Source of the DNA: Bacteroidales bacterium
Lineage (GTDB): Bacteria; Bacteroidota; Bacteroidia; Bacteroidales; UBA932
Assembly: GCA_015060405.1 (NCBI GenBank)
Contig: SUYN01000003.1
Span: 62,001 to 126,000, forward strand
Reading direction: 5' to 3'
DNA: 64,000 nt
This document shows, in pieces, positions 20,250 through 39,500 of the stretch. The position numbers and the translations under genes were made by a program. The notes under the pieces are model-generated. The model saw only the letters and a program-made list of their open reading frames with translations, ran no database searches and was not told where the DNA came from. Each line of letters opens with the position of its first letter. The first letter of the stretch is position 1.

Positions 20250-21179
20250 TCAGAAGCAATATCCCACCGATATAGAAAGTGTGTTGCTGAGGGGAGAACC
20301 GCTTCCGGTGAGCAGATAGGCCAGATTCAGCTTGACTCCCGAGAACTTCACTCCGGCTCCAACGGACGCAAATGAAGGGATGGGAGAATCCCCGCCGTAT
20401 CTGTAGCCTGCCCTGAACGACACCAGGTCATCGAAGGTGTATTCAGCTCCCAGGGAAGCTGCTGTCCATCCGCTGAAGAAATAGTCAAAGTCGAGGTCAG
20501 CCTCCACCTGATGCTTCTGGCCGAACTCCTTCTCATAGCCCGCTCCCAGAGCGATGGAGCCTGGGATGCAGAATTCCTGACCGGTCGCAGACCTGACAGT
20601 GCCAAGCACGTTCGACACTCCTGCTGCAACCTTGATCTGTGAGAACTTCGCCATCACGAAAAGGTCTGCTGCGACAGTTCCGTACGAATGGCCCTGAGCC
20701 AGCGTGCTGGATGCATATCCCAGATTCACTCCTGCAGACATGTTCGGAAGGAACTTATAGGCAACGCCGACAGCCGCATGCAGGTCTGACGGCCTGAAGG
20801 TCCCGTCCGAAGCACCCGTACCATCGGTAATGTCATATGAAGGATGCATGCCATAGTACAGGCCTGCGGAAACTCCCAGCCTGTCATTGAACTTTGCCGC
20901 TCCGGCAGCATTCAGGATGCCGGTCTTTGCTGCGCCCGGCTGCCACATCGTGTAGCCGGCTGCCACATCGAGAGCAGCCTCTGAAAAAGGGATGGCGGCA
21001 GCATTCGTAAACGCCGCATGTGAAACAGCCCCTGTCTCGGTAAGCCCCGTTCCGCCCTTGGCAAGAATCACTGGATCCACATCAGCAATCGTGAAAGGAA
21101 GTGCCTGGGCACCCGCAAGAGCAGGCATCAGAAGCATAAGGGCTCCTGCCAGATATGTTTTGATATTCTTCATCGTCAT
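20250..21179 (-). CDS. PorV/PorQ-like outer-membrane barrel, left operon
   Basis: A 309-residue protein with a signal peptide ending near GAQA and a FadL-like beta-barrel pattern of repeated amphipathic strands (AGVNLGYASS, GAGYEKEF, ASLGAEYTF), ending in a C-terminal aromatic (GYCF). PorV binds T9SS substrates and brings them to the attachment complex; PorV-like paralogues are common. Its ATG overlaps the stop of the S8 peptidase gene by one base (TGATG), suggesting translational coupling. Residues from about 24 to 290 are, but for one residue (Ala for Ser), identical to those of the right operon's copy at 38583-39500. It may escort the adjacent peptidase, an inference. Confidence 0.75.
   Translation of the reverse strand: MTMKNIKTYLAGALMLLMPALAGAQALPFTIADVDPVILAKGGTGLTETGAVSHAAFTNAAAIPFSEAALDVAAGYTMWQPGAAKTGILNAAGAAKFNDRLGVSAGLYYGMHPSYDITDGTGASDGTFRPSDLHAAVGVAYKFLPNMSAGVNLGYASSTLAQGHSYGTVAADLFVMAKFSQIKVAAGVSNVLGTVRSATGQEFCIPGSIALGAGYEKEFGQKHQVEADLDFDYFFSGWTAASLGAEYTFDDLVSFRAGYRYGGDSPIPSFASVGAGVKFSGVKLNLAYLLTGSGSPLSNTLSISVGYCF
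20317..21111 (-). repeat. 795-bp inverted repeat, left arm (PorV-like gene)
   Basis: This tract reads in reverse complement as 38645-39439. Both arms are 795 bp and I found a single base difference (giving Ala here, Ser there). Identity breaks off sharply at both ends inside the two genes. Confidence 0.9.
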
Positions 21180-23776
21180 CAGAGTTTTATTACATTCTGC
21201 TTGTATTCATTGCCACCGAAAGCAACTGTCATAGTATATACGCCAGGAGGGCATGAGCTCATGTCTATCCTCGCGGGCTCATATCCGCTCACTACAGCGG
21301 TCTCATCATACATGGTTTTTCCTGTCTGGCTCACGATGACAATCCGTGTCTGGGAAGCATCAAGCGTGCTCACATTCACGAAGTCAGTAACAGGGTTCGG
21401 ATATACAGACACCGGCTTGGACGGATCCTTGACCTGGACCTTGAACGTACATTCTGCCGATTCGCCTTTGGCATCTTTCGCAACCAGAGTCACGTCAACT
21501 GTTCCATATCCAAGCGCAGTTCCGAGCAGCTGGTCTTTCTTGGATGTAATGTGAAGAACCTTCGGATCAGAGATTATGGCCTCATATTTCAACTGTTCTC
21601 CATCAGGATCCGTGAAATACCCGGTCATGTCAAGAGTGAACTCCTGACCCTTTGCGGTCAGAAGAATATTATCAACATCCTTGATTTTCTCCGGAGCAAG
21701 ATTGCCAAGAATTGTGTATGTGAATTCTTTCTCCGCAATCATCCCATACTCATCTTCAGCCTTGACTTTTGCCGTGTACACACCTTCAGGTGCCGCGCTG
21801 CCGACAATGGTTATCCTCCAGGTGCCGTCTGGTATGAGCATGATGCTGTCAGCTTCCGATCCGTTCTCATAAATCACATTTATCGAGTGTCCGTCAGGAT
21901 CAGCGACAGTTATTGATATATTAAGAGTCTCTGATGACTTCACTTCATAGCTGCCTTCATAAGAAGTGGAGATTACAGCTGCATTATTCTTTGTTGTGGA
22001 GACTTCGTATACATCAGTCGGCTCCGAGTAACTGCGGCCGTATGAGTAGGCTATCACCTTGACATAATATGTAGCTGAAAAGTCAAGTCTGCTGATGGTA
22101 TATGAAAATGTCTCTCCTATTCCCTTATCAGGAGTGACTGTGACGAAGTCGGCACCTTCATGGGAATCCACCGTAGCCTTCTCCACCTTATCTTTGTCCT
22201 GGCCGTAGATAAGCATGAATCCATATGCGGGATCACCTTCCGAATCCGAAGGGATCTGCCATGAAAGGTCGATGCTGTTTCCCCTTGCTTCCAGTTCAAG
22301 ACCTGTTACGGGACCCACCTCGACCTGCTTTCCATAGACGAAGGCACCATATGCATCCAGAAGGCCACCTATCTCATATGCCGGTGAGAGCACAGAGGTG
22401 TTCGCGCTTCCAAGGATTCTTTCCTTGAGCATCTCGTTGGTAAAGCCGGGGCCGCCGAAATGTGAAACCAGAAGAGCCGCGACACCTGACACATGTGGGC
22501 AGGCCATGGAAGTTCCATTCATGCTGCCGTATGAATTGTCGGGCATAGTACTGTAGATTGCCGTGCCCGGAGCGGCTATGTCAACCCAGCTGCCATAGTT
22601 CGAGAAGGATGAACGAGTCCCTTCAGATGTTATCGAGCCGACAGCGATGACCTCGGAATAATTGGCTGGAGCCGCATTGAACAAAGCGTCATTTCCTGCC
22701 GCAAAGATCACGACGCCACCTTTCATCGGAGAGTCCGGAAGCTGATTGCCGTTATTGTCGCATCCTGCATATTTGATGAAGTAGTCTATCGCCTGCCTGT
22801 CTGCCGCATTTACCTTTGCATTCTTTGCCCTTTCTATCTCTTCGGAACTGAATTGACCGTCCCCGTCAATGTCATAATTATAACCCCAGCTGTTCTGGCT
22901 GATTACGGCTCCATTGTCAGCTCCCCATTTGATTGCAGCCGGTGAGTCTCCTGAAATGACAGTTCCGTCAGGACCGTCCTTGAAGATCTGACAAGACATT
23001 ATCTTAACGCCGGCTCTGCCGTTCGCATAGTCTCCTCCTGCGATTCCGGCTATACCCTTGCCGTTGTTGCTGACGGCAGCGATCGTACCCGCAACATGGG
23101 TTCCGTGAGATCCGGCAACGACAATCGAGTTGTCATCTACGGAATTGTAATGACCTGATACAAGACAATTGGCAGCAAGGTCTTCATGCTTGAGATCGAC
23201 TCCTTCGTCGACAACAGAGACAATTACATCCGGGCTTCCTGTAGTGTAGCTGTTCCATACGGGCTGAACATTTATGTCAAAACCCGGATAACTGAGGTTC
23301 TTCAGGCCCCACAGCTTTGTGTCAAGGTCATTGAAGTCATTGATTCTGATCTGCCTTACCGGTTCTATGTAATCCACTCCAGGTACAGCCTTGAATCCTT
23401 CTTCCGCTTTTGTGTGAGGTATGTCCTCAGAATACTTTATGACATACCAGCGGTGAAGTCCCTCCTTTCTGGTACGAGGCTCGAACTCTCCGGCATGAGG
23501 GAAAAGCCTCCTCATATGAGTGATGCCAAGATTGTCAAGGACCGCATTAAGCTCTACGGACTTCGTCCGGACTTCACCTGCTGCTATCTGACTCTCGACC
23601 ATAGCTGTCATTTCCTCACTGAAATATACATAGGCTTCACCGGGAACATATACATTATTGCCGTTCTCCATGGAATCCTCTGTCTGTGAGTCTTCCGGGG
23701 CGACACCAATGATCTCCCTGTCAGTACATGAAAGGAGAATTACTGCCATCAAAAAAGCAGATAAACCATGCTTCAT
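21179..23776 (-). CDS. S8 subtilisin-like peptidase lipoprotein with T9SS sorting domain, left operon
   Basis: An 865-residue protein. The signal MKHGLSAFLMAVILLSC has a lipobox-like end; ATG 23776 is preferred to an upstream TTG. A propeptide-like region precedes the S8 domain, with catalytic Asp near 190 (VVDEGVD), His near 224 (GSHGTHVAGT) and Ser near 423 (NGTSMACPHVSG), and oxyanion Asn in AAGN. A fibronectin III-like domain and two cadherin-like repeats (DPDGHSINV, DPDGEQLKY) follow. The last 75 residues (SVYPNPVTDFVNVS to the end) are a T9SS type A sorting domain. It is likely a surface protease that feeds peptides to the SusC/SusD pair of its operon. Having both a lipobox and a T9SS domain is odd. 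Confidence 0.9.
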   Translation of the reverse strand: MKHGLSAFLMAVILLSCTDREIIGVAPEDSQTEDSMENGNNVYVPGEAYVYFSEEMTAMVESQIAAGEVRTKSVELNAVLDNLGITHMRRLFPHAGEFEPRTRKEGLHRWYVIKYSEDIPHTKAEEGFKAVPGVDYIEPVRQIRINDFNDLDTKLWGLKNLSYPGFDINVQPVWNSYTTGSPDVIVSVVDEGVDLKHEDLAANCLVSGHYNSVDDNSIVVAGSHGTHVAGTIAAVSNNGKGIAGIAGGDYANGRAGVKIMSCQIFKDGPDGTVISGDSPAAIKWGADNGAVISQNSWGYNYDIDGDGQFSSEEIERAKNAKVNAADRQAIDYFIKYAGCDNNGNQLPDSPMKGGVVIFAAGNDALFNAAPANYSEVIAVGSITSEGTRSSFSNYGSWVDIAAPGTAIYSTMPDNSYGSMNGTSMACPHVSGVAALLVSHFGGPGFTNEMLKERILGSANTSVLSPAYEIGGLLDAYGAFVYGKQVEVGPVTGLELEARGNSIDLSWQIPSDSEGDPAYGFMLIYGQDKDKVEKATVDSHEGADFVTVTPDKGIGETFSYTISRLDFSATYYVKVIAYSYGRSYSEPTDVYEVSTTKNNAAVISTSYEGSYEVKSSETLNISITVADPDGHSINVIYENGSEADSIMLIPDGTWRITIVGSAAPEGVYTAKVKAEDEYGMIAEKEFTYTILGNLAPEKIKDVDNILLTAKGQEFTLDMTGYFTDPDGEQLKYEAIISDPKVLHITSKKDQLLGTALGYGTVDVTLVAKDAKGESAECTFKVQVKDPSKPVSVYPNPVTDFVNVSTLDASQTRIVIVSQTGKTMYDETAVVSGYEPARIDMSSCPPGVYTMTVAFGGNEYKQNVIKL

Positions 23777-23849
23777 AAACAAGTCTTATAAATTGTAAAA
23801 AGGTGGGCGGCCAAAAGGCCGCTCACCTCAAAAAGTAATATCAATGAAT

Positions 23850-24722
23850 TTAGTTCTTTGACAATGTCAGGCCTCCAAGGTATGCACTGTACCATCCGCC
23901 GGCGTTTGAAGAATAGACACCAAACGCATTAGGAATAGTAAGAGTGCCATCTGTATTCAGATTGAACAGAGCATACTGGGTCGTATTTGCTGAACTGAGA
24001 TCCGGACCGTCAAAGCCCATAATCACACAGTCATCGTAACCGATAGGCTGGCCAGACTCGAGAAGGAGCTGAGTCCTGTCCTCATTTGCTACAGCAAGGA
24101 AGATGTTGCATCCACTAGCCGCAGAGAAGCCGGCACCAGCGAAGTAAGGGTCGATGTTCTGAATGAGTACAGAGTTGAATGTAGGATCATTGTCATTCGA
24201 AACGATCGAAATGTTGAGAGCATACTGGTCGCCGTAGAAGAAGTCAACGAGCGGACCACCTGTCCAATCACCGATGAATGCTGCAAGCGGATGATCAAGG
24301 TCCTTGATTGTAAAGAATGCTGTGTCATAGCTACCTACAGAAACACCAGCAGTTGCACTTGCAATCTCGATTGTAAAGTCCTTGCCACCTGTAAACTCAC
24401 CAGAGAAGTCAGTAATCTCTACCTCAATGTTCTGAGTTGTAGTCTCGCCTGAGAAAGTAAGGATTCCCGAAGCAGGTGAAACGATTTCATAGTCTACACC
24501 TTTGACACCCTTTCCGTCTACAGCCTTCACAGTTACCTGCACTTCTGCACCTGTGGGATTGTAGATTGACACAGGAACCGCAACCTTACCGACTGTCTCA
24601 TCGACTGAGAAAGTAACAGCATCCAATGTCGCAAATGTCTGAGGCTGAAGCTCGATTGCCCTGTTGCATGAAGCAGAGGTCAGGAGCACGATTGCAGCTG
24701 CTATATAATATAACTTTTTCAT
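23850..24722 (-). CDS. Surface lipoprotein with Calx-beta-like domain, left operon
   Basis: A 290-residue lipoprotein (MKKLYYIAAAIVLLTSASC). Residues 35-130 look like a Calx-beta or similar beta-sandwich (VTFSVDETVGKVAVPVSIYNPTGAEV, ILTFSGETTTQNIEVEITD). The C-terminal half is a beta-rich domain of unknown family. It occupies the place after susD where Bacteroidota PULs often encode a surface glycan- or ligand-binding protein, so a substrate-binding role is an inference. Spacing is 24 bp from susD. The right operon has a lipoprotein of the same length at the same position with little visible sequence likeness. Confidence 0.75.
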   Translation of the reverse strand: MKKLYYIAAAIVLLTSASCNRAIELQPQTFATLDAVTFSVDETVGKVAVPVSIYNPTGAEVQVTVKAVDGKGVKGVDYEIVSPASGILTFSGETTTQNIEVEITDFSGEFTGGKDFTIEIASATAGVSVGSYDTAFFTIKDLDHPLAAFIGDWTGGPLVDFFYGDQYALNISIVSNDNDPTFNSVLIQNIDPYFAGAGFSAASGCNIFLAVANEDRTQLLLESGQPIGYDDCVIMGFDGPDLSSANTTQYALFNLNTDGTLTIPNAFGVYSSNAGGWYSAYLGGLTLSKN

Positions 24723-26332: not shown

Positions 26333-29320
26333 TTAGAATGTAATTTCAAGACCGAAGAGGTACTGCTTGGAGTTTCCGGCACGACCATAGGTGAGGTTCG
26401 AGTCGACCTCAGGGTCAATACCTGAGAACTTGGTTACAGTAAAGATGTTACGGCCTGTGAATGAAACTTTTACACCGTTGATCACCTGCTGGTTTCCGAG
26501 GAATCTTCTTGGAAGGTCGTAGGCAACCTGAAGGTTCTTAAGACGGAGGAAGTCAGCATTCTCATACATATGAGTGTCAAACTGCATTATCGCACCCTTA
26601 GACCAGTCCGGCCACTGAGCATCAGTATTCTCCGGTGTCCAGAAGTCAGCGACAGTCTTGTGCTGGTTCATACCTGAGAAGCTGTTAGGGTTGGCGTAGA
26701 AGTACATATCGTTGTTGATAAGGGTCTTTCCAAGAACGTATGCGAAGTCAGCCTGGAGTGAAAGTCCTCTCCAGCCGCCACCGATGCTGAATCCTCCATA
26801 GATCGGAGAATTGAGCTTCTTGCCTGTGTTCTGAGTAAGACCGGCCTCGTCGAAGACCTTTGTTGTCTCTTTCATTGTAGTCACGTCTACGTCCTCGCCT
26901 GGGAGATACCACATAGGCATACCGTCTGCCGGATCGATACCTGCGAAGATAGGAGCATAGAAAGACACCGGCTGACCTACTACATATGCGAAGCCATAGC
27001 CGACCATCTCCCATCTGTCGAGACCGTTGAAGAGCTCGGTGACTTTTTCGTCATTGAAGTTGAAGGTAGTGCTTGCACGGAGCCAGTAATCCTTTCCACT
27101 AAGAATGTCAACACCCAAGGTGAGGTCAATACCCTGATTGAGGAGACCGCCGACATTGTCATAAAGGCTGCTGAATCCTGTAGTGTAGTTATAAGGAACC
27201 TCCATCAGCATTGAAGAAGTCTTTCTGTTGTAGTACTCCACGTTGAAATCAACTCTGTCAGCGATACGTCCGTTGAATCCTACTGTAAGAAGGGCCTGCT
27301 GCTCCCATGTAAGTCCAGGGTTAGAAGGCTGGCCTACAACCATTGAACTTCCTTCCGCATAGTTGGTTGAAGGAGAGAGCAGGGCATAGTGCTGGTAGTC
27401 ACCGATGGATGCGTTACCCTGGGTACCGTAGCTGACCTTGAAGTTGAGGTCATTCAGCCAATAGGCATTCCTCAAGAAGTTCTCATTCTTCATCTTCCAC
27501 ATGCCGCCGACTGCCCAGAATGTAGCGTTTCTGTTGTTCGGACCGAAACGTGAACATGCGTCATTACGTACGGAAGCATCAAAGTAGTACTTGTTTGCAA
27601 ATCCGTAGTCTACACGACCGAAGAAAGAGAGGAACTTGCTGGCTGTGAACTGCTCCTCGATGTCGTATTTAGCCTGAACACCATCCTGAAGATTGATCAG
27701 ACGGTCGTCAGTAATACCTTCAGAATATGCATAGATGTAATCGTAGCGGTTTGAAACGCCTTCCTGACCTGCAAGTACTGTGAAGTGGTGGTCCTCAGCG
27801 ATGTCGAATGCATACTCAATCGTATTGGTGATGGTAGCAGCATAATCGATGGCGTTAGACCTGCTTCTTGCACCGTTGAGAGGAGCAGAAATATATGTAG
27901 GCTTCCTGTACGATGTGCCATAAGAGATAGATCCGTCAACACCGGCACGAGAAGAAATCTTGAAGTTCTTGAACGGCTCGATCACGACATTGAATGCAGC
28001 GAGGAGACCGTAGCGCTGAGTGAGGTTAGGTACATTGGACATGTAGTAGTGAGGGTTCATGAGTCCGTTAGGGAATTTAGTCTCATAGTACTCACCTGTC
28101 TCGGGATTGATTACCGGATAAAGAGGGTTGTTAAGGAAAGAAAGACCTCCTGAAGTGTAGTTCGATACGCTTGACGCACCACCCCAGTTACCGTTGGTCT
28201 GCCTTGCATCATATGAAAGGCTGAGGTTGGCACCGACTTTCAACCATTCCTTCGGATGACCCTGAACGTTTGAACGTACGGTGTAACGGTCAAAGTAGTT
28301 TCCGATTGTCGTACCTCTCTGATGGAACTGAGATGCACCGATCATGTAAGCCACCTTGTTTCCACCGCCCTCTACAGTAACGTCATTCTGGAACTGAGGG
28401 TTGTTGAACTGCTGGAGTACGTTATACCATTTTGTGTCGGCATCAAATCCGTTGTCAGTATAGGTCGCTTTGATCTGTGCAGGAGTCATAAGACCAGCTC
28501 TTACCCAGAATTCCTTGAGCTCAGGACCCGAGAACATGTTCTCATAAAGAGTCATGTCGGCAAGAGTCGAGACACCGGCCTGGCTTCTTACGGTTACAGA
28601 AGCCTTTGCATCATAAGAACCGGATTTTGTGGTCACGAACACAACTCCGTTGGCAGCACGTGAACCATAGATGGATGTTGCTGAAGCATCCTTGAGGATA
28701 GAGATGCTGGCAATGTCATTCGGGTTCATCGCCATGATTGCACGGCTTGAAGACTGGATACCGTCAATAATGAACAGAGGAGTAGAGCTTGAACCGAGAG
28801 AACCTGTTCCGTGCAGAGTCATGGAAACGTTGTTCTCACCGGCGATACCTCCGGTTGTCATTACGGCAAGACCCGCAACCTGGCCCTGAAGCTGATCCAG
28901 AGGCGATGCGGAAGGAGCTGTAGCAAGCGCTTCAGACTGAACGGTAGTTACAGAGCCCACCATTGTTCCGACCTTTCTTGCAGAACCATAACCGACAGCA
29001 ACCGCACTCTCCAGAGTCTCTGTGTCGACCTTGAGGTCGCAATTTACAACTGCCATGCCGTTTACAGGAACTTCGGCATTCTGGTATCCGATTGATGAGA
29101 ATACGAGAATTCCATCCTTTGGAACCATAGAAAGCGAGTACTGACCGTTCACATCCGTGCTGACACCATTCATAGTACCTTTTACATGAACGGCAGCGAA
29201 AGGAACCGGCTCGCCTGTAGTGGCATCGGTCACATTACCCGACACTGTCAGACTCTGGGCATAAGCCACAGAAGCGACAAGCATCGCTAACGCTGTGAAA
29301 AATAGTTTCATTTTTCTCAT
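26333..29320 (-). CDS. SusC/RagA-family TonB-dependent transporter, left operon
   Basis: A 995-residue SusC-like transporter. Signal peptide to about residue 21 (SVAYAQ), carboxypeptidase-like regulatory domain (GNVTDATTGEPVPFAAVHV, residues 26-105), plug domain (LQGQVAGLAVMT, STPLFIIDGIQ, ILKDASATSIYGSRAANGVVFVTTKSG), then a 22-strand barrel ending in GLEITF. It drives TonB-dependent import across the outer membrane with the SusD lid encoded next. The first 12 codons lie in the inverted repeat shared with the right susC. In the orientation sequenced, the invertible promoter lies about 110 bp upstream and points into it, so this operon is predicted to be ON. Confidence 0.96.
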   Translation of the reverse strand: MRKMKLFFTALAMLVASVAYAQSLTVSGNVTDATTGEPVPFAAVHVKGTMNGVSTDVNGQYSLSMVPKDGILVFSSIGYQNAEVPVNGMAVVNCDLKVDTETLESAVAVGYGSARKVGTMVGSVTTVQSEALATAPSASPLDQLQGQVAGLAVMTTGGIAGENNVSMTLHGTGSLGSSSTPLFIIDGIQSSSRAIMAMNPNDIASISILKDASATSIYGSRAANGVVFVTTKSGSYDAKASVTVRSQAGVSTLADMTLYENMFSGPELKEFWVRAGLMTPAQIKATYTDNGFDADTKWYNVLQQFNNPQFQNDVTVEGGGNKVAYMIGASQFHQRGTTIGNYFDRYTVRSNVQGHPKEWLKVGANLSLSYDARQTNGNWGGASSVSNYTSGGLSFLNNPLYPVINPETGEYYETKFPNGLMNPHYYMSNVPNLTQRYGLLAAFNVVIEPFKNFKISSRAGVDGSISYGTSYRKPTYISAPLNGARSRSNAIDYAATITNTIEYAFDIAEDHHFTVLAGQEGVSNRYDYIYAYSEGITDDRLINLQDGVQAKYDIEEQFTASKFLSFFGRVDYGFANKYYFDASVRNDACSRFGPNNRNATFWAVGGMWKMKNENFLRNAYWLNDLNFKVSYGTQGNASIGDYQHYALLSPSTNYAEGSSMVVGQPSNPGLTWEQQALLTVGFNGRIADRVDFNVEYYNRKTSSMLMEVPYNYTTGFSSLYDNVGGLLNQGIDLTLGVDILSGKDYWLRASTTFNFNDEKVTELFNGLDRWEMVGYGFAYVVGQPVSFYAPIFAGIDPADGMPMWYLPGEDVDVTTMKETTKVFDEAGLTQNTGKKLNSPIYGGFSIGGGWRGLSLQADFAYVLGKTLINNDMYFYANPNSFSGMNQHKTVADFWTPENTDAQWPDWSKGAIMQFDTHMYENADFLRLKNLQVAYDLPRRFLGNQQVINGVKVSFTGRNIFTVTKFSGIDPEVDSNLTYGRAGNSKQYLFGLEITF

Positions 29321-29412
29321 AGCTGTTACTTTTAGTTGTTAAACATAAATATTGATTTGATTATTTTCCGTACAGTATACACTACACTAACTGCACATAT
29401 TAACGAGCGTTT
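29285..29412 (-). repeat. Left arm of 128/127-bp inverted repeat bounding the invertible segment
   Basis: The reverse complement matches 30250-30376 with one substitution and one single-base insertion by my alignment. It covers the first 12 codons of the left susC, its leader, and most of the crossover site. Confidence 0.92.
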
Positions 29413-29421: not shown

Positions 29422-29431
29422 ACTCGAAATG

Positions 29432-30203: not shown

Positions 30204-30240
30204 ATTGTAATATACCTGATGATTTGACGATTATTGACAC

Positions 30241-30376: not shown

Positions 30377-33300
30377 GCACTGATGACTTCTGTGGCCTTT
30401 GCCCAGAATATCACAGTGACCGGAACAGTCACTGACGCCACTACAGGTGAGCCGGTGCCTTTCGCAGCAGTTCACGTGGACGGCACCATGACAGGTACAA
30501 ATACTGATGCAGATGGTTTGTACACTCTCCAGGTTCCGGCTGATGGCCTTCTTGTGTTCTCTTCTATCGGATATGAGGATGCACAGGTGAATGTGGCAGG
30601 AAAGACCCGCATCAACGTCATTCTGAATCCGAATGCAGAGGCGCTCGACGAGACTATCGTTGTCGCTTACGGCGTTCAGAAGAAGTCTTCTTTTGCAGGT
30701 TCTGCCACTCAGCTCAGCGGAAAGAAGCTCGAGACAATGCAGACTTCAAACATCTCGAAGTCACTCGAGGGCGCGGTCGCTGGTCTCCAGACTTCAAGTT
30801 CATCAGGAACTCCGGGTTCAGGATCAAGCATGATCATCCGTGGTTTCGGTTCGATCTCTGCATCCCAGTCTCCGCTCATCGTGCTTGATGGTGTTCCTTA
30901 CGAGGGCTCGCTCAACTCTATCCCGGCTCAGGACATCGAGTCTCTTACTGTCCTCAAGGATGCAGCGGCTAACTCAATGTACGGTGCACGTGGTTCAAAC
31001 GGAGTCATCATGGTTACAACCAAGAGCGGTAAGGCTGGTAAGGTTCAGATCACTTTCGATGCAAAGGCAGGTATCAACTCAAGAGGTGTCCAGCCTTATG
31101 ACGTCATCACAAATCCTGGTGACTATTATGAAATGACATGGGAGTCCCTCAGAAATGCGGTATACTATCCAGGTACAATGTCACTTGCTCAGGCTAACCT
31201 CCATGCTTCTTCGGGAATCATCAACCAGTATGGCCTCTACAACATCTATAAGGGTGTAGGTAACACAGAACTCATCGATCCTGCAACAGGAAAGCTCAAT
31301 CCAAATGCATCAGAGCTCAAGTGGAATGACAGATGGATGACAGACGTATTCAAGCCAGGCGTACGCCAGGAGTACAATGTGACTGCATCAGGCGGTTCTG
31401 ACGCTACCAGAGCTTATATGTCGGTTTCATACCTCAACGACAACGGTTATGTGGAGAATTCAGGCTTCAAGCGTCTTTCTGTAAGAGGTAAGATCGACCA
31501 GTCTATCGGAAAGAAGATCGCTGCAGGTCTCAGCTTCGCATACTCGAATACAGACCAGCAGGTTTATAACGACTCTGAGAGAAACAACTTCTCTAACCTC
31601 TTCTGGATCAGCCAGTCTATGCCTTGTATCTATCCTATCTATCTCTATGACAGAGAGACAGGCGAGCGCCAGTACGGCAAACAGGGTGAGGACCTCTATG
31701 ACTGGGGTGAGGATGGCCGTCCGGCAGCAGCATCGACAAATGCATATGGCCAGCTCATGACATCTGACAAGAGCGACATCTCAGACAACATCTCTACAAG
31801 AGGATATGTGAGCGTTGACATTCTCAAGGACCTCAAGGCATCGGTAAACGTGTCATACGACGTGTTCAACGGCAAGTATGACTACTATACTACTCCAGTG
31901 GGTGGTGACGCCCTCATAGTAGGCGGACGTGGCCAGCAGCAGGTAAACAGGACAACAGCCCTCAACGCCAACCAGCTCATCACTTACACTCCGACATGGG
32001 GTGACCATTCTCTCAACGTCCTCCTCGGACATGAGACCAAGTCCGACAACAGCTACGTTCTTTCGGGTGAGATGACCAAGTTCTTCCTCTTGAACGTTAC
32101 TGACTTCTCAAATGCAGCAGTTTACCAGAATCTTACATCATACTCTTCAGAGTACTTCCTCGAGGGTGTGTTCGCAAGAGCAGAGTACAACTATGCAAAC
32201 AAGTACTACGGTACAGCTTCATATCGTCGCGACGGTTCATCAAGATTCCATCCTGACCGCAGGTGGGGTTCATTCTGGTCAATCGGTGGATCATGGAACA
32301 TGAAGAATGAGGCATTCCTCGCCGACTTCCCTCAGATCGACATCCTCAAGCTCAAGGCCAGCTACGGTACACAGGGTAACGATAACATCGGTTACACCAA
32401 GGTATATGAGGACATCTACTCTCTCAGCAGAACAGCTGAAGGCGAACACTCTATCACATATGCATTCCGCGCAGCCCCTGAGGTTACATGGGAGAAGTCA
32501 AACAACTTCAACATCGGTCTCGAAGGTAAGTTCTTCAACAGATTCGGCCTCAATGTCGAGTACTTCATCAAGGAGACAAAGGATATGATCTATGCACGTC
32601 CTCTCGCTCCATCAATGGGTCAGCCTAACAGCCAGCTCGTGAACGACATCGACATGAAGAACACAGGTGTCGAGTTCGAGATCACTGCAGACCTCATCAA
32701 GACTCACAACCTTTACTGGAACATCGCTTTCAACGGTACACACTACAAGAACATCATCACACGTCTTCCATCTGACTACCCTGATGAAGGAAAGCAGGTC
32801 GGCAGCTATTGGAGAGAAGTGGGCGGATCACTCTATAACTACTACCTCTATGAGTGGGCAGGTGTAGATCCTACCAACGGTCTTCCACAGTACAGCAGCT
32901 ACTATAACCTCGAACTTGATGAGAACGGCGAGGAGGTGAAGGTTCTTGATTCAGAAGGTGAATTCGTGGATCTCGTGAACTCGACTTCTTCAGGTGAGGC
33001 TACACAGATCAAGACAGGCAAGACTCCTATTCCTGACCTTTATGGTGGATTCAGCACTTATCTCTCATTCTACGGATTTGACCTCAGTGCAGCATTCGCA
33101 TACCAGATCGGCGGTTGGACACTTGACTCAAACTACCAGACTCTTATGACAGCCGGTGACCTTGGTTCAAACTGGCACAAGGACATCTTCAACCGTTGGA
33201 CTCCGCAGAACACTGACACAGATGTTCCACGCGTTCAGAACGGTTTCCAGGATGCAAACCAGACTTCAACAAGATTCCTCATCAATTCTTCTTACTTCAG

Positions 33301-33511
33301 TGTAAGAAATGTGACTTTGGGATACACACTTCCTAAGCACATTACTGACCGCATGGGAATGGAGAGACTCAGAGTATATCTGACAGGTGACAACCTTTGG
33401 TATACATCCAAGAGAAAGGGACTCGAGGTACGTAACTCATTCACAGGAGGGACAGGCTTCGTATACTCAGCTCTCAGAACTGTATCGGCAGGAGTCCAGC
33501 TTACATTTTAA
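30341..33511 (+). CDS. SusC/RagA-family TonB-dependent transporter, right operon
   Basis: A 1056-residue SusC-like transporter, signal peptide ending SVAFAQ, regulatory domain GTVTDATTGEPVPFAAVHV, plug with LEGAVAGLQTSSSSGTPGSG, SPLIVLDGVPYEG and LKDAAANSMYGARGSNGVIMVTTKSG, and a barrel ending AGVQLTF. It is a paralogue of the left SusC but clearly diverged after the shared leader, mostly in the barrel, so a different cargo is likely. No promoter facing it is visible between 30204 and 30340, so the operon is predicted OFF in the sequenced orientation. susD follows after 18 bp. Confidence 0.96.
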   Translation: MRKMKLFFTALAALMTSVAFAQNITVTGTVTDATTGEPVPFAAVHVDGTMTGTNTDADGLYTLQVPADGLLVFSSIGYEDAQVNVAGKTRINVILNPNAEALDETIVVAYGVQKKSSFAGSATQLSGKKLETMQTSNISKSLEGAVAGLQTSSSSGTPGSGSSMIIRGFGSISASQSPLIVLDGVPYEGSLNSIPAQDIESLTVLKDAAANSMYGARGSNGVIMVTTKSGKAGKVQITFDAKAGINSRGVQPYDVITNPGDYYEMTWESLRNAVYYPGTMSLAQANLHASSGIINQYGLYNIYKGVGNTELIDPATGKLNPNASELKWNDRWMTDVFKPGVRQEYNVTASGGSDATRAYMSVSYLNDNGYVENSGFKRLSVRGKIDQSIGKKIAAGLSFAYSNTDQQVYNDSERNNFSNLFWISQSMPCIYPIYLYDRETGERQYGKQGEDLYDWGEDGRPAAASTNAYGQLMTSDKSDISDNISTRGYVSVDILKDLKASVNVSYDVFNGKYDYYTTPVGGDALIVGGRGQQQVNRTTALNANQLITYTPTWGDHSLNVLLGHETKSDNSYVLSGEMTKFFLLNVTDFSNAAVYQNLTSYSSEYFLEGVFARAEYNYANKYYGTASYRRDGSSRFHPDRRWGSFWSIGGSWNMKNEAFLADFPQIDILKLKASYGTQGNDNIGYTKVYEDIYSLSRTAEGEHSITYAFRAAPEVTWEKSNNFNIGLEGKFFNRFGLNVEYFIKETKDMIYARPLAPSMGQPNSQLVNDIDMKNTGVEFEITADLIKTHNLYWNIAFNGTHYKNIITRLPSDYPDEGKQVGSYWREVGGSLYNYYLYEWAGVDPTNGLPQYSSYYNLELDENGEEVKVLDSEGEFVDLVNSTSSGEATQIKTGKTPIPDLYGGFSTYLSFYGFDLSAAFAYQIGGWTLDSNYQTLMTAGDLGSNWHKDIFNRWTPQNTDTDVPRVQNGFQDANQTSTRFLINSSYFSVRNVTLGYTLPKHITDRMGMERLRVYLTGDNLWYTSKRKGLEVRNSFTGGTGFVYSALRTVSAGVQLTF

Positions 33512-33529: not shown

Positions 33530-35035
33530 ATGAAAAAGATATTATACATCGCGGCATTTGCCTTGATTGCAGCTGTTTCTTGCGAGAAGAGCTTTGACGT
33601 GGATAACACGGGAAATGTCTATGGTCCGCAGATAGCAGAGAAGGTGGAGCAGGATCCGTCCGTTCTTTCTTCTTATGTCGGTGGTCTCTACTCTTGGCTG
33701 ACAACCTACGGAATGGCTTATGATGGCCATGATGACTACGGTCTTCTCAGTGTAATGATGAACCTCGAGTATATGGGTAACGACATCGCCATGAACGGAA
33801 CTCAGAACTGGGGTCTCTATGACTATAACCATGATTATGGACAGGAACAGTACATCCGCAGTTTCCAGAACTGGACATGCTTCTATACATTGATCAACAA
33901 TGCAAACGCGATCATCAACTTCTTCCCTGCTGATTCAGATCCTACAGATGTGAATTCAAGAGGATTCCTCGGCCAGGCTTATGCGTTGAGAGCCTTTGCA
34001 TACACCAACCTTATCTACATCTTCCAGGATCCTGTTGATGAGAACGGAGACCTCAGGACAGATGCGCCTACAGTTCCTATCGTGTTCGCTACTCGTGACG
34101 GCGTAGATTCAGAGACAGTGACTGCAAGCCAGGGACGTAATCCTATGTCAACAGTGATGGCTCACATCGAGGAGAACCTCGCAAAGGCTCTTCCACTCCT
34201 CGAGGGTTATGTGAGACCTAACAAGAACGAGGTTGACTACTCGGTTGCTCAGGGTATCGCTGCAAGATACTATCTCCTTACTCAGCAGTGGGAGAAGGCA
34301 GCTGAGGCTGCTGCTGAGGCTATGAACGGCTACACCCTCATGGACAAGACCAGGCTCTATTCAGGATTCATGGAGATTGAGGACGGTGAGGTAATGTGGG
34401 GATTCAACCACTCTACTGAGACTCAGACAGCATATGCTTCATTCTTCTCACACATGAGTAACGAGAGCGAAGGTTACACCGGAATCGGTCAGATGATCAA
34501 GTGTATCGACGCCAAGCTTTACAGCCAGATTCCTGAGACTGACTTCAGAAAGGGTCTCTTCAATACAGAAGCTGGCGATCCTTCAGCAGCACAGCCAGGC
34601 GGACAGTATCCTTACGCATCAAGAAAGTTCGGTTTTGCTGACCAGTGGCTTCAGGACTACATCTACATGAGAGCTGCCGAGATGATCCTTATCAAGGCTG
34701 AGGCTGAAGCAAGATTGGGCAACAACGGACCAGCTGCAACTACTCTTAAGGTGCTGATGGCTCAGCGTGACCCAGGTTTCGGTAAGGGTTCTGTAACAGT
34801 TGAAGATGTTCTCCTTCAGAGAAGAATCGAGCTTTGGGGAGAAGGATTCCACTATTTTGACCTCAGAAGAAACGGTCTCGGAACAGTGAGAAATTACGAG
34901 GGCAGCAACCACCCAGAGTGGGCTCGCAAGGACTTCGCTCCTCATGCCCTTTCATTCAGATTCCAGATTCCTCTCCGTGAGATCCAGGAAAATACTGAGA
35001 TCAACGAGGAAGACCAGAACGAGTGGACACTTTAA
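33530..35035 (+). CDS. SusD/RagB-family outer-membrane lipoprotein, right operon
   Basis: A 501-residue SusD-like protein; signal MKKILYIAAFALIAAVSC. Family features are FYTLINNANAIINFFPAD, LGQAYALRAFAYTNLIYIFQDP, DYIYMRAAEMILIKAEAEARLG and LQRRIELWGEGFHYFDLRRNG, with RFQIPLREIQENTEI at the C-terminus. It is the surface lid and binding partner of the right SusC. It lies between susC and the 290-residue lipoprotein gene, with short gaps typical of a single transcript. Its sequence is only distantly like the left SusD. Confidence 0.95.
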   Translation: MKKILYIAAFALIAAVSCEKSFDVDNTGNVYGPQIAEKVEQDPSVLSSYVGGLYSWLTTYGMAYDGHDDYGLLSVMMNLEYMGNDIAMNGTQNWGLYDYNHDYGQEQYIRSFQNWTCFYTLINNANAIINFFPADSDPTDVNSRGFLGQAYALRAFAYTNLIYIFQDPVDENGDLRTDAPTVPIVFATRDGVDSETVTASQGRNPMSTVMAHIEENLAKALPLLEGYVRPNKNEVDYSVAQGIAARYYLLTQQWEKAAEAAAEAMNGYTLMDKTRLYSGFMEIEDGEVMWGFNHSTETQTAYASFFSHMSNESEGYTGIGQMIKCIDAKLYSQIPETDFRKGLFNTEAGDPSAAQPGGQYPYASRKFGFADQWLQDYIYMRAAEMILIKAEAEARLGNNGPAATTLKVLMAQRDPGFGKGSVTVEDVLLQRRIELWGEGFHYFDLRRNGLGTVRNYEGSNHPEWARKDFAPHALSFRFQIPLREIQENTEINEEDQNEWTL

Positions 35036-35050: not shown

Positions 35051-35923
35051 ATGAAGACAATTAAATATTTAGCTATCGCTGCTTCGGCACTTCTTCTTGC
35101 AGTCTCATGCCAGAAGACACTTGAAAAGGCAGAGGTTGAGAAGGGATTCGCTCCAAAAGGTGCAGTGCCGACATCGACCATCAACACAAGTGACTTTAAG
35201 ATTGTTGAAGCTCAGAGTTATGCAGAAGTAACAGCGTCGTTCTCAGGCATAACATCTGATATGGATTCACTGGAGATCGGATTCCTCGTGTCAACAGATC
35301 CTGACTTCACATCATCTACATCATACCTTATCGAGAATCCTGCAGATGGTACATTCACTCAGCAGGTAAAGGTCAAGATAGGTACTATCAACTATGTCAA
35401 GGCGTTCGCAGGCAACACCGATGGCGCTTCTTTTTCAGAGACTCTCGCACTTGACGTTCCTACCGTAGAGTGGTACAAGGTCCTTGCCGGCAAGTATACA
35501 GCAGATGTATACAGCTATTGGGATGAAGGCGCCTGCTCATATGAGGACCACGTCCTTGAGATCGCTTTTGATCTTGATGCGAAGAAGATGACTATCAACA
35601 ACATCGACCCTTGGGCATATCCGCAGGGCGTACCTACATCACTCACAGGAGATGTAGACCTTGAGGCAAGAACTGTAACATTCGTGTCAGAAACAGGTTA
35701 CTTCGACACTGGTCTTTCAGGATATGGATTCATTACTTATGCTCTTGACCCTGCTGCTCTCAATGAGGGTAATCTGGTCCCTGTAGCAGAGATGACATTC
35801 AAATTCTCTGAGGATGGCCAGCAGATAAGTGCACCACTTTACTGTACTTATTCTATTCAGGAGGGTAACTCTGGAACAGTCGACATCTATTTGCCACAGA
35901 TTTACTCAGCAGTAAGCGAATAA
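35051..35923 (+). CDS. Surface lipoprotein of unknown family, right operon
   Basis: A 290-residue lipoprotein (MKTIKYLAIAASALLLAVSC). It is beta-rich. Residues 40-140 may be an Ig-like domain (SYAEVTASFSGITSDMDSLEIGFLVSTD); the second half starts near VEWYKVLAGKYTADVYSYWDEG. I do not recognise the family. It has the same length and operon position as the left operon's Calx-beta lipoprotein, but the two look alike only in general build. A role in surface capture of substrate next to SusC/SusD is an inference. Confidence 0.75.
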   Translation: MKTIKYLAIAASALLLAVSCQKTLEKAEVEKGFAPKGAVPTSTINTSDFKIVEAQSYAEVTASFSGITSDMDSLEIGFLVSTDPDFTSSTSYLIENPADGTFTQQVKVKIGTINYVKAFAGNTDGASFSETLALDVPTVEWYKVLAGKYTADVYSYWDEGACSYEDHVLEIAFDLDAKKMTINNIDPWAYPQGVPTSLTGDVDLEARTVTFVSETGYFDTGLSGYGFITYALDPAALNEGNLVPVAEMTFKFSEDGQQISAPLYCTYSIQEGNSGTVDIYLPQIYSAVSE

Positions 35924-35931
35924 TCTAAAAT

Positions 35932-38571
35932 ATGCAACACAGCAGATTGCTGACAATAATTATGGTGCTTTCCGTGATGCTGTCTTCTTGTGAGACAGCA
36001 CTCACGGAAAGTACTTTATTTGATTCCGATAAGACTGTGTCAGCGGGTCTTGATAACACGGTATCAAACAAATTACGAATAAAGGTCACGGAAGAACTGG
36101 CTCAGAAACTGCTTTCTGTAAAAGATAGCGAAGGTGTGATTCCAACTGAGGTGGCGGCCGAAGCAGGTCTCGGTCCTGAAACCGGGGTCAGCAAGGTCTC
36201 CACTTTATTCATGATTGGAGGAAAGTATGAATCACGTCAGAAGGCGGCAGGCCTGCACCTGTGGTATGAGATTGAACTTGATCCGGACCACGTGGCAACC
36301 AAGGCTTCCAGCGACCTTAAAGGTATTCAGGGATTGTCAGTAATCGAGCCTGTGGCCAGAATCAGAATGGCCAGTGTCATGAACGACCCTAAACTCAGCC
36401 TGCAGTGGCACTACCACAATACAGGCGCTTACAGTTTCAAGGAAGGATTTGACATAGGACTGGAAGAGGTCTGGAGAAGGTATCAGGTGTACGGAAGTCC
36501 GGAAGTCATTGTCGCGATATGCGACAATGGATTTGATGTGTCCCATCCTGACCTGATCGATAACCTCTGGGTAAATGAGGCCGAGTATAACGGAACTGAA
36601 GGTGTCGACGATGATATGAACGGCTATGTCGATGACATACATGGCTATAACTTCTCGAAAAAGTCATCCAAGTTCACTGTAGAGGATCATGGAACCCATG
36701 TTGCCGGAACTGTTGGCGCAGTCAACAACAACGGAATCGGTGTCTGTGGTGTCGCTGGCGGAAAATGGCCGGAGAAAGGAACCAGACTCATGCTGCTGGA
36801 GACCCTTAAGGGAGATGAACAGTCTTACCTCAAGGCTATGCAGTATGCAGTGGAGAACGGAGCCCTGATTTCCCAGAACAGCTGGGGTTACGAAGCGGGT
36901 GTGAAGATCCTCTATGAGTCCGACAAGGCGGGTATTGATTATTTTATCGACAATGCCGGTCTGGATGAAAACGGAAACCAGACAGGATTGATGAAGGGAG
37001 GACTCATGGTGTTCGCCTCAGGAAACGACACACAGGACTTCGGTTATCCGGGGCAGTACGAAAGATGTATGGCTGTCTCTGCTGTAGGACCTACAGGACT
37101 TGTTGCACCGTACTCAAACTATGGTGACTGGGTTGACGTCTCTGCTCCGGGAGGAGACAGGGGGCTCAGTTTCCAGTTCGGAGGAGTGTACAGCACTCTG
37201 CCAGGTGAGCAATACGGCGGATTGCAGGGTACATCAATGGCAGCTCCGCATGTGTCCGGACTTGCAGCGCTGATTCTGAGCGTTGCCGGGGGTGAAGGCT
37301 ACACGGCTGACCAGCTGTATGCTGACATTCTCAATTCTACGGATCCGACATTCTATAATTACAACCCGGGAAAGGAAGGACTTTACGGAGCCGGTGTGAT
37401 CGATGCGGTTCGTGCGGTTTCGCAGTTCAGCAAGATTGCGCCATCAGCGCATGAGCATGTGGAAGTAAGTCTCCAGTCCAATAATGCGGCTTTCACCCTT
37501 GATGTTCCTAAGGATGAGGACGACAGCACTGCATTCTATTATAACATCTACATAAGTGATAAGGAGATCAATGTGGCTGATGCTCAGAAGTATACCTTCG
37601 AGATAGAGAAAAGTGATGTCCTTGAAAACGGCCTGCATAAGGTGATTGTCAACAGGCTCGGATTTGAGCAGACATATCATTATGCCGTTTCGGCATCCGA
37701 TTATGCCGGCAACGAGTCGGTTCTCTCACATCACGGAACCTTCTCGACGGAGAAGAACAACATGCCTGTGCTGGAGGTCAGCGAAGACACAAAGATAGAG
37801 ATCAACTCGTATGACACGGCGACAAGAACATTCAAATATTCCGATCCTGACAACCACTCCGTGACAATCGAGTTCTCCACCACTGCAGAAAGAGGCATCA
37901 CATTTACAGAAGTGTCGGAAGGACTTGCAGTTGTGAAGATCGAAGGCAGCGAATCAGACAAGGGAGACTTCGAGTTCACCATATCTGTCACAGACGAATT
38001 CGGACTGGCAAATACTGCTACATACCAGTATACCATTCTGGACAATTCGGCTCCTGAACTTGTCTCCAGGATTGCTGATGTGACCTTGGCAGAAATCGGT
38101 TCAACTTATGAAATCAGTGTGAGCAAGCACTTCAACGATCCGGATGGGGAAAGCCTTTCATTGAAATTCGACGTCGCTGACAAGAAGGTTGCGACTGCAT
38201 CTGCCAACAAGGGAAACATCGTGGTCAAGGCAGTTGGAGCCGGTTCTACCACAATCAAGGCGACAGCATCCGATGCCTCCGGCGAATCTGTTTCTACCGA
38301 ATTCAATGTGGTCGTGTTCGATATGTCAGAGCCGTTCCTGATTTATCCGAATCCTGTTACCGACATACTTAATATCCGCGGAAAGGAAAGTGCGGAAAGC
38401 AGTGTCAGAATACTGTCCTCTACAGGACAGCAGGTGTACGAAGGCAGGCAGAAGACCGGTCTTGAGAGTGTTGTCAGCATCGATATGACGGCTAATGCTC
38501 CAGGCGTCTACACCGTCATCATCAATCCTGAAGGCGGAGAAGGATACACAAGGACAATCGTGAAACTCTAA
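35932..38571 (+). CDS. S8 subtilisin-like peptidase lipoprotein with T9SS sorting domain, right operon
   Basis: An 879-residue paralogue of the left peptidase. Signal MQHSRLLTIIMVLSVMLSSC; propeptide-like region; S8 domain with Asp near 198 (AICDNGFD), His near 252 (DHGTHVAGT), oxyanion Asn in ASGND and Ser near 435 (GTSMAAPHVSG). Fibronectin-like and cadherin-like repeats follow (DPDNHSVTI, DPDGESLSL). The C-terminal 75 residues, from LIYPNPVTDILNI, are a T9SS type A sorting domain. It starts 9 bp after the lipoprotein gene and is followed 11 bp on by the PorV-like gene. It should act on proteins at the cell surface when the right operon is on. Confidence 0.9.
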   Translation: MQHSRLLTIIMVLSVMLSSCETALTESTLFDSDKTVSAGLDNTVSNKLRIKVTEELAQKLLSVKDSEGVIPTEVAAEAGLGPETGVSKVSTLFMIGGKYESRQKAAGLHLWYEIELDPDHVATKASSDLKGIQGLSVIEPVARIRMASVMNDPKLSLQWHYHNTGAYSFKEGFDIGLEEVWRRYQVYGSPEVIVAICDNGFDVSHPDLIDNLWVNEAEYNGTEGVDDDMNGYVDDIHGYNFSKKSSKFTVEDHGTHVAGTVGAVNNNGIGVCGVAGGKWPEKGTRLMLLETLKGDEQSYLKAMQYAVENGALISQNSWGYEAGVKILYESDKAGIDYFIDNAGLDENGNQTGLMKGGLMVFASGNDTQDFGYPGQYERCMAVSAVGPTGLVAPYSNYGDWVDVSAPGGDRGLSFQFGGVYSTLPGEQYGGLQGTSMAAPHVSGLAALILSVAGGEGYTADQLYADILNSTDPTFYNYNPGKEGLYGAGVIDAVRAVSQFSKIAPSAHEHVEVSLQSNNAAFTLDVPKDEDDSTAFYYNIYISDKEINVADAQKYTFEIEKSDVLENGLHKVIVNRLGFEQTYHYAVSASDYAGNESVLSHHGTFSTEKNNMPVLEVSEDTKIEINSYDTATRTFKYSDPDNHSVTIEFSTTAERGITFTEVSEGLAVVKIEGSESDKGDFEFTISVTDEFGLANTATYQYTILDNSAPELVSRIADVTLAEIGSTYEISVSKHFNDPDGESLSLKFDVADKKVATASANKGNIVVKAVGAGSTTIKATASDASGESVSTEFNVVVFDMSEPFLIYPNPVTDILNIRGKESAESSVRILSSTGQQVYEGRQKTGLESVVSIDMTANAPGVYTVIINPEGGEGYTRTIVKL

Positions 38572-38582
38572 AGACATTGACA

Positions 38583-39500
38583 ATGAAGACAATAAGAACA
38601 TATCTGGCAGGAATCGCATTGTTGCTCACCCCTGCCGTATCCAATGCCCAGGCACTTCCTTTCACGATTGCTGATGTGGATCCAGTGATTCTTGCCAAGG
38701 GCGGAACGGGGCTTACCGAGACAGGGTCTGTTTCACATGCGGCGTTTACGAATGCTGCCGCCATCCCTTTTTCAGAGGCTGCTCTCGATGTGGCAGCCGG
38801 CTACACGATGTGGCAGCCGGGCGCAGCAAAGACCGGCATCCTGAATGCTGCCGGAGCGGCAAAGTTCAATGACAGGCTGGGAGTTTCCGCAGGCCTGTAC
38901 TATGGCATGCATCCTTCATATGACATTACCGATGGTACGGGTGCTTCGGACGGGACCTTCAGGCCGTCAGACCTGCATGCGGCTGTCGGCGTTGCCTATA
39001 AGTTCCTTCCGAACATGTCTGCAGGAGTGAATCTGGGATATGCATCCAGCACGCTGGCTCAGGGCCATTCGTACGGAACTGTCGCAGCAGACCTTTTCGT
39101 GATGGCGAAGTTCTCACAGATCAAGGTTGCAGCAGGAGTGTCGAACGTGCTTGGCACTGTCAGGTCTGCGACCGGTCAGGAATTCTGCATCCCAGGCTCC
39201 ATCGCTCTGGGAGCGGGCTATGAGAAGGAGTTCGGCCAGAAGCATCAGGTGGAGGCTGACCTCGACTTTGACTATTTCTTCAGCGGATGGACAGCAGCTT
39301 CCCTGGGAGCTGAATACACCTTCGATGACCTGGTGTCGTTCAGGGCAGGCTACAGATACGGCGGGGATTCTCCCATCCCTTCATTTGCGTCCGTTGGAGC
39401 CGGAGTGAAGTTCTCGGGAGTCAAGCTGAATCTGGCCTACGTCATGGCTTCAAGCCCTATGAAGAATACATTGGCATTGTCACTGGGCTATTCGTTCTAG
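38583..39500 (+). CDS. PorV/PorQ-like outer-membrane barrel, right operon
   Basis: A 305-residue barrel protein; signal MKTIRTYLAGIALLLTPAVSNAQ. ATG 38583 is chosen over an in-frame TTG at 38577. Its mature part is nearly identical to the left operon's copy, but the signal peptide and the last 18 or so residues (ASSPMKNTLALSLGYSF) differ. As a PorV-like protein it would bind a T9SS cargo and deliver it to the surface attachment machinery; the cargo is probably the peptidase encoded just upstream. A terminator closes the operon. Confidence 0.75.
   Translation: MKTIRTYLAGIALLLTPAVSNAQALPFTIADVDPVILAKGGTGLTETGSVSHAAFTNAAAIPFSEAALDVAAGYTMWQPGAAKTGILNAAGAAKFNDRLGVSAGLYYGMHPSYDITDGTGASDGTFRPSDLHAAVGVAYKFLPNMSAGVNLGYASSTLAQGHSYGTVAADLFVMAKFSQIKVAAGVSNVLGTVRSATGQEFCIPGSIALGAGYEKEFGQKHQVEADLDFDYFFSGWTAASLGAEYTFDDLVSFRAGYRYGGDSPIPSFASVGAGVKFSGVKLNLAYVMASSPMKNTLALSLGYSF
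38645..39439 (+). repeat. 795-bp inverted repeat, right arm (PorV-like gene)
   Basis: The mirror of 20317-21111; see that entry. The arms are about 17.5 kb apart and could serve for RecA-dependent inversion or gene conversion of the whole locus. Confidence 0.9.

What the first reader, a model, noticed from the sequence alone, without database searches (positions are those of the whole stretch)
20250..39500. Mirror-image pair of SusC/SusD/lipoprotein/S8 peptidase/PorV operons around a self-encoded invertase: a predicted either/or surface switch
Seen: two five-gene operons in the same order diverge from one serine recombinase gene. The recombinase is bounded by near-perfect inverted repeats containing crossover-type sites, and one outward promoter sits inside. 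Known: Hin-type and Mpi-type serine invertases flip promoters, and Bacteroidales phase-vary surface importers. Inference: inversion moves the only promoter from one operon to the other, so a cell makes one whole importer, protease and T9SS-shuttle set at a time, not merely on or off. I do not know a described system with this exact build.
Basis: partly seen in the sequence, partly recalled or inferred. Interest (0 to 1): 0.95.

Follow-up and report, generated by a model that had tools for sequence, protein, structure and literature searches.

The report
Either/or switch between importer operons
In a bacterium of the Cryptobacteroides group, two mirror-image sets of SusC/SusD-type importer genes face away from a gene for a likely DNA-flipping enzyme, and the only strong outward promoter-like sequence lies on that enzyme gene's own segment, so flipping the segment is predicted to make each cell express one set or the other; the same layout of divergent importer genes recurs in 41 of 143 related loci examined.

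Summary
In detail: two five-gene operons in the same order (SusC, SusD, lipoprotein, S8 peptidase, PorV-family barrel) diverge from one Mpi-like serine recombinase gene on an ~850-bp segment bounded by inverted AAACG-CT-CGTT sites, with one strong promoter match (10 of 10) aimed at the left operon. The layout recurs: of 144 non-redundant recombinase loci, 42 (window included) have susC diverging on both sides. In 37 of 40 testable loci both sites share the same central dinucleotide, though it differs between loci (shuffled mean 9.8, maximum 22); a promoter scoring >=8 lies on one arm in 30 of 40 and on the other in 5 (4.8 expected). Where both SusC partners are recognisable in two loci, they keep their sides in 14 pairs and are exchanged in 10, among them the window and its nearest relative L074. 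Inversion itself was not seen: no reads, one genome per species. The T9SS label fails: SprA and PorU were not found. Ten searches of the held library showed no description of this build. Verdict: new variant of a known kind, a predicted either/or importer switch.

The parts
29604..30203 (-). Mpi-like serine recombinase (199 aa), predicted invertase
   Evidence: Resolvase + HTH_7; NF009949 259.6 bits, cut-off 272; PDB DNA-invertase 4m6f E 8e-15
29407..30255 (.). Predicted invertible segment, core to core (inferred)
   Evidence: Bounded by the two sites below
29391..29422 (.). Left predicted crossover site, core AG (plus strand) at 29406-29407
30240..30271 (.). Right predicted crossover site, perfect 15+2+15 inverted repeat, core CT at 30255-30256
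29432..29463 (-). Promoter match TTTG-N20-TATATTTG aimed at the left operon
   Evidence: 10 of 10 letters
29133..29412 (-). Left repeat arm: site, 5' leader and start of susC
   Evidence: alignment
30250..30528 (+). Right repeat arm: site, 5' leader and start of susC, no promoter match
   Evidence: alignment
26333..29320 (-). SusC, left operon
   Evidence: Pfam; TIGR04056 652 bits
24747..26306 (-). SusD, left operon
   Evidence: Pfam
23850..24722 (-). Lipoprotein-like with Calx-beta domain, left operon
   Evidence: Pfam
21179..23782 (-). S8 peptidase with Por_Secre_tail, left operon
   Evidence: Pfam
20250..21179 (-). PorV-family barrel, left operon
   Evidence: NF033709 127.6 bits, cut-off 90
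30341..33511 (+). SusC, right operon
   Evidence: Pfam; RagA and SusC structures
33530..35035 (+). SusD, right operon
   Evidence: Pfam
35051..35923 (+). Lipoprotein-like, right operon
   Evidence: No Pfam match; 28% identical to the left one
35932..38571 (+). S8 peptidase with Por_Secre_tail, right operon
   Evidence: Pfam
38577..39500 (+). PorV-family barrel, right operon
   Evidence: NF033709 127.1 bits, cut-off 90
39520..39554 (+). Intrinsic-terminator-like hairpin closing the right operon
   Evidence: 15-pair stem
20317..21178 (.). Outer inverted repeat, left copy
   Evidence: 862 nt, 97%
38578..39439 (.). Outer inverted repeat, right copy
   Evidence: 862 nt, 97%

Best explanation
A Mpi-like serine recombinase gene lies between two divergent SusC/SusD/lipoprotein/S8-peptidase/PorV-family operons, is predicted to invert its own ~850-bp segment at inverted AAACG-CT-CGTT sites, and would thereby carry the segment's single strong promoter-like sequence from one operon to the other. 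Shown in sequence: gene layout, sites, promoter match on one arm only, almost identical leaders on both arms, and recurrence across the clade. Inferred: that inversion happens, that the promoter match is active, and that no other promoter drives the bare operon, so that a cell makes one complete importer set at a time. Also inferred: the two sets differ in ligand, since SusC, SusD, lipoprotein and S8 are only 26-34% identical between sides, while the nearly identical PorV-family gene sits in both operons so that either state supplies it.
For: Two sites in opposite orientation and found nowhere else in the genome within 3 mismatches; only recombinase match in the genome. 42 of 144 non-redundant recombinase loci have susC diverging on both sides; in a tree of 112 recombinases a 41-row group (SH-aLRT 98) is susC-flanked in 40 (31 both sides, 9 one). 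Cores match in 37 of 40 loci, shuffled mean 9.8, maximum 22 of 100,000. Promoter score >=8 on the recombinase 3' arm in 30 of 40 (8.7 expected), on the other arm in 5 of 40 (4.8 expected). Between-locus SusC pairs >=78% identical: 16 same side, 15 opposite side of 31. Of 861 pairs of two-sided loci, both partners keep sides in 14 and are exchanged in 10 (cut-offs chosen by me): the window's SusC pair families recur in five loci, L051 and L182 as in the window, L050, L074 and L124 exchanged. In-silico inversion puts promoter and leader before the right susC with spacing equal to within 1 nt.
Against: No reads and one genome per species, so no direct view of both orientations. No pair with both partners >=70% identical is exchanged; the 10 exchanged pairs are 37-68% identical, and operons also relocate: in L036/L192 both outer flanks and the segment keep their orientation while the operon changed side. 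10 of 40 loci score under 8 on the predicted promoter arm; L060, L099 and L196 score higher on the other arm and 5 tie. L055 has mismatched cores and a good promoter match on both arms. Loci are related and arms may be homogenised, so counts are not independent. 83 of 144 recombinase loci have no such susC at all.
Confidence: 0.86

Rival explanations
1. On/off rather than either/or: the segment inverts, but the bare operon has its own regulated promoter outside the segment or inside its shared leader, so the flip only adds expression to one side.
For: The leader between site and susC is conserved on both arms and could hide a promoter of another type; only one consensus was tested.
Against: Promoter scores on the bare arm are at chance (mean 6.62 against 6.50 shuffled).
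Confidence: 0.08
2. A locked relic: the recombinase no longer inverts here and one operon is permanently silent.
For: No orientation polymorphism could be tested; the inner half of the left site has diverged.
Against: The recombinase frame is intact with the conserved N-terminal Ser10; cores stay matched within loci while differing between them; both operons have open frames.
Confidence: 0.04
3. The sites serve mainly for operon exchange between species or sides rather than for expression switching.
For: Partner operons are mixed between loci; operon homology breaks at or close to the site in L036/L192 and L041/L182; L036/L192 is a relocation.
Against: It does not explain a promoter placed 16-21 nt inside one site in most loci. 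Breaks in L081/L191, L044/L048, L048/L099 and L194/L203 lie 24-165 nt away, as shared arms and ordinary homologous recombination would give.
Confidence: 0.02

Closest known systems
Mpi of Bacteroides fragilis (master serine DNA invertase)
   Same: Same recombinase family by best NCBIfam match; published repeat ARACGTTCGTN (passage in PMC8375218) has the same AAACG-NN-CGT frame; flips promoters of surface loci.
   Different: Mpi inverts 13 regions at a distance, seven of them capsule promoters (passage in PMC4747536); here the only sites found are the recombinase's own flanks, and the core differs from locus to locus. Score lies under the family cut-off.
Tsr0667 SusC/SusD shufflons of B. fragilis
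   Same: DNA inversion varies SusC/SusD family proteins (passage in PMC4747536).
   Different: A tyrosine enzyme (recalled from its name) and shufflon-type multiple inversions; here a serine recombinase and one promoter segment.
Invertible promoters near susC/susD in human-gut Bacteroidales
   Same: Orientation changes near SusC/SusD-like loci were seen in IBD cohorts (passages in PMC10939037).
   Different: The passages seen describe no pair of whole operons around a self-encoded serine invertase; the paper's supplementary tables were not seen.
Hin switch of Salmonella
   Same: Serine invertase gene and promoter on the invertible segment (recalled; PMC11868660 passages, describe Hin acting at hix).
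   Different: Hin's promoter drives one operon plus a repressor of the distant alternative gene (recalled); here the two alternatives flank the segment directly.
Campylobacter fetus sapA S-layer inversion (recalled, no call)
   Same: One promoter on an invertible segment between divergent alternative surface-protein genes.
   Different: Single surface-protein genes rather than five-gene importer operons, and no dedicated serine invertase on the segment (recalled).

Membership tests
Mpi family invertase | NCBIfam NF009949 curated cut-off 272 bits | tested here: not met
   259.6 bits, best family hit
Mpi family invertase | Serine recombinase with HTH acting at AAACG-NN-CGT type repeats | tested here: met
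   Domains; sites in both arms; published repeat seen in a passage. Action itself untested
Mpi family invertase | Global control of many distant promoters | tested here: not met
   21-mer with up to 3 mismatches found only at this locus; more divergent sites not excluded
Bacteroidota invertible promoter | Promoter consensus between inverted recombinase sites | tested here: met
Bacteroidota invertible promoter | Both orientations present in a population | not testable with these tools
   No reads; one genome per species
SusC/SusD transporter | SusC/RagA model NCBIfam TIGR04056, cut-off 368 bits | tested here: met
   Left SusC 652 bits; the right SusC was tested by Pfam and structures only
Tyrosine-recombinase shufflon | Tyrosine recombinase | tested here: not met
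   Resolvase domain
Type IX secretion system | SprA translocon in the genome | tested here: not met
   0 here and 0 of 81 genus genomes; 5 of 5 control genomes positive; genome 94% complete
Type IX secretion system | PorU sortase NF033707 | tested here: inconclusive
   No match, but no T9SS genome was run as control with this model
Type IX secretion system | T9SS PorV equivalog NF033710, cut-off 250 bits | tested here: not met
   80.5 and 78.6 bits; the wider PorV/PorQ family is met (127.6, 127.1; cut-off 90)

The most novel reading that the evidence does not exclude
A clade-wide two-slot selector: each locus has a private-core serine invertase that chooses between two interchangeable, mostly unrelated nutrient-capture operons, and operons are traded between slots and species at the crossover/leader sequence, so the lineage runs a cassette library with a one-at-a-time selector. 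In this window the selected unit includes a protease/PorV-like pair of T9SS ancestry that works without a T9SS.
Probability: 0.4. Interest if true: 0.88.

Novelty: new variant of a known kind. Interest (0 to 1): 0.78.

Why it matters
Bacteroidales inversions in the passages I read are on/off capsule promoters or shufflons. A dedicated invertase that would toggle between two complete, dissimilar importer-plus-protease operons, repeated with different cargo across some forty species-level genomes of an animal-gut lineage, would mean that nutrient choice, and with it exposed surface proteins, can be bet-hedged as a mutually exclusive pair. The matched, locus-specific core dinucleotides give a simple testable rule for which sites recombine with which.

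Tried and rejected
Rejected: T9SS secretion set; master switch for distant loci; the third susC/susD at 39577-44061 as part of the right operon, because a terminator lies between and the switch leader is absent there. The leader ATATTTATGTTTAAC is exact only on the two arms in this genome, but a relaxed form is present at only 59 of 100 switch susC genes and 3 of 13 others, so it is not used as a defining feature. Contig ends near the recombinase were considered as a hint of mixed orientations and dropped; not computed. Left-operon end: no strong terminator before the YhhN-family gene. Led nowhere: viral contigs with the single protein (no relative); viral contigs with the alignment (80 loci fetched, none analysed); defence library (no match). 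In one search, 2 of 42 loci were skipped (L087, no up site in range; L203, arm missing) and 3 of 40 mismatched: L055 (GT/AC, which are complements, as direct-repeat sites would give), L078 (I read a CC site in the printout that the picker passed over) and L194 (no good site on one arm).

Papers: listings only, except passages read in PMC11892184, PMC10939037, PMC11868660, PMC4747536, PMC8748976, PMC10994844, PMC12118408, PMC12632263, PMC13114119 and PMC8375218. The original Mpi paper is not held; most subscription papers are not in the library.

Full report
What is there. The window lies in a 2.43-Mb genome, 94% complete. Its genus includes a genome that is evidently Candidatus Cryptobacteroides faecipullorum: L040 (G052, same genus) and the named L080 have the same recombinase DNA and contig length. 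Two operons of five genes in the same order diverge from a 600-bp recombinase gene. Partner proteins are 34% (SusC), 26% (SusD), 28% (lipoprotein) and 34% (S8) identical, but the PorV-family pair is 93% identical and makes an 862-bp outer inverted repeat. The right SusC matches solved RagA and SusC structures.

Recombinase. Resolvase domain plus HTH. Its best NCBIfam match is the Mpi family, under the cut-off (259.6 against 272). Among solved structures it matches DNA-invertases best. It is the only match to itself in the genome at E <= 0.001, and its site occurs nowhere else within 3 mismatches of a 21-mer.

Sites and promoter. The right site is a perfect 15+2+15 inverted repeat around CT; the left one keeps the outer half and the core. 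One promoter match (TTTG-N20-TATATTTG) lies 19 nt inside the left site, aimed at the left operon; the right arm scores 7 of 10, like shuffled sequence. Flipping the segment in silico places promoter and leader before the right susC with spacing equal to within 1 nt.

Recurrence. In 151 genus genomes (window's own included) the recombinase has a match in 65. I fetched wide stretches for 40 of the matches listed there, 80 named loci out of 566 candidates (the best 80 are kept), and 36 more after a family search in which 114 of 398 genomes matched the alignment at 1e-60. After removal of duplicates 144 recombinase loci remain: 42 with susC diverging on both sides within 1.6 kb, 19 with one side, 83 with neither. 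Of the 19 one-sided loci, 12 have a contig that ends within 2.3 kb on the bare side (lengths); in one of them, L041, that side matches chromosomal flank of L182. In a midpoint-rooted tree of the 112 loci held at that time, a 41-row group (SH-aLRT 98) holds 31 two-sided, 9 one-sided and 1 unflanked (L039, cut off 456 bp past the gene). L060 lies in another Mpi branch with its promoter match on the other arm and looks like a second origin. Of the 28 new loci returned by the family search (best scores, one being the window), 16 have susC on both sides, 11 on one, 1 on neither; the two-sided L179 and L181 belong to another genus of the family.

Matched cores. With sites chosen by arm letters only, 40 of 42 loci have a site of >=7 of 10 in both arms; cores agree in 37 of 40 (shuffled mean 9.8, maximum 22 in 100,000). 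From the listing I count the matched cores as CT 16, CC 7, GA 6, AC 5, TC 2, GT 1; none is palindromic, as directional inversion would need. Identity between the two arms of a locus is background at -30 to -11 inside the site (0.26, other loci 0.27), 0.93 at the core (other loci 0.38) and 0.72 just outside (0.46). Relatedness and arm homogenisation inflate these counts, but six different cores are involved. The B. fragilis Mpi repeat ARACGTTCGTN has the same frame (passage in PMC8375218).

Promoter asymmetry. Score >=8 on the recombinase 3' arm in 30 of 40 (8.7 expected) and on the 5' arm in 5 of 40 (4.8 expected); higher on the 3' arm in 32, lower in 3, tied in 5.

Sides and partners. Between loci, SusC pairs >=78% identical over >450 aa lie on the same side in 16 and on opposite sides in 15 of 31 pairs. 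Of 861 pairs of two-sided loci, both partners are recognisable and keep their sides in 14, and are exchanged in 10 (cut-offs are mine, chosen, and the pairs share members). The window's two SusC families recur in L051 and L182 as in the window and in L050, L074 and L124 exchanged; L074 has the recombinase nearest to the window's (77%), but its partners are only 41% and 37% identical to the window's. No pair is exchanged with both partners >=70%; the one pair above that, L200/L201, keeps its sides. In L036/L192 operon homology (5.9 kb, 87%) breaks at the 12-mer in both, in L041/L182 16 bp from the core in both; in L081/L191, L044/L048, L048/L099 and L194/L203 breaks are 24-165 nt off. L036/L192 keep both outer flanks and segment orientation while the operon changed side, so that case is relocation, not plain inversion. 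An outer repeat such as the PorV-family pair, or the 670-bp, 89% repeat at the two ends of the L041 contig, could flip everything between; that would leave the promoter-operon relation unchanged but move operons relative to the chromosome (inference).

Cargo. Of 31 two-sided loci with more than 9 kb on both sides, an S8 hit is present on at least one side in 20 and on both in 9; a PorV-family hit in 10 and on both in 3. One S8-less locus, L143, has a C10 peptidase. A surface protease with a SusCD importer is thus common but not universal cargo; peptide uptake is a guess from RagA kinship.

T9SS. Both PorV-family and both Por_Secre_tail matches of the genome lie in these operons. SprA_N is absent here and in all 81 genus genomes searched, with 5 of 5 control genomes positive; the PorU model gave nothing but had no T9SS control. 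The right PorV-like protein still matches a solved T9SS PorV over 65 residues (E 2e-5). How the tailed S8 reaches the surface is unknown.

Literature. None of the ten searches in the held library listed a Mpi-type invertase between two SusCD operons; on/off capsule promoters, SusC/SusD shufflons and invertible regions near susC/susD are described (passages). Most subscription papers and all supplementary tables were out of reach, so this is not proof of novelty.

Verdict. A new variant of a known kind: a self-encoded, locus-private, Mpi-like promoter switch predicted to select between two whole importer operons. Inversion itself remains to be shown.

Noticed in passing
window 20250-23782 and 35932-39500: The genome's only Por_Secre_tail proteins and only PorV-family proteins lie in the two switch operons, in a genus where no SprA was found: an orphan protease/PorV-like pair of T9SS ancestry.
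   Followed up: partly
window 20317-21178 and 38578-39439; L041 contig 897-1564 and 12696-13363 (oriented by recombinase): Outer inverted repeats around the whole locus (862 nt 97%; 670 nt 89%), which could let the whole block flip by homologous recombination.
   Followed up: partly
L186, about 17481-18052 (oriented by recombinase): A second divergent susC pair with several AAACG-NN-CGTT-like sites between the genes and no recombinase gene there: perhaps a satellite switch acted on in trans.
   Followed up: no
L060 (G088): Divergent susC pair around a recombinase of a different Mpi branch, promoter match on the opposite arm, SusC partners 75% identical: looks like an independent origin.
   Followed up: partly
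L034 8371-13201 and G122 37416-42255 (extended L038 context): A third susC operon behind the promoter-side operon, related (68%) to the opposite-side operon of L038: possible spare cassette.
   Followed up: partly
L184 7576-10398: Three sites with the same core family and an unidentified 407-aa ORF (7706-8929) between the susC-side site and the recombinase.
   Followed up: no
window 44056-49963: Glycyl-radical enzyme, radical-SAM protein and Fe-S/aldo-keto reductase proteins beside the locus; looks ordinary.
   Followed up: no
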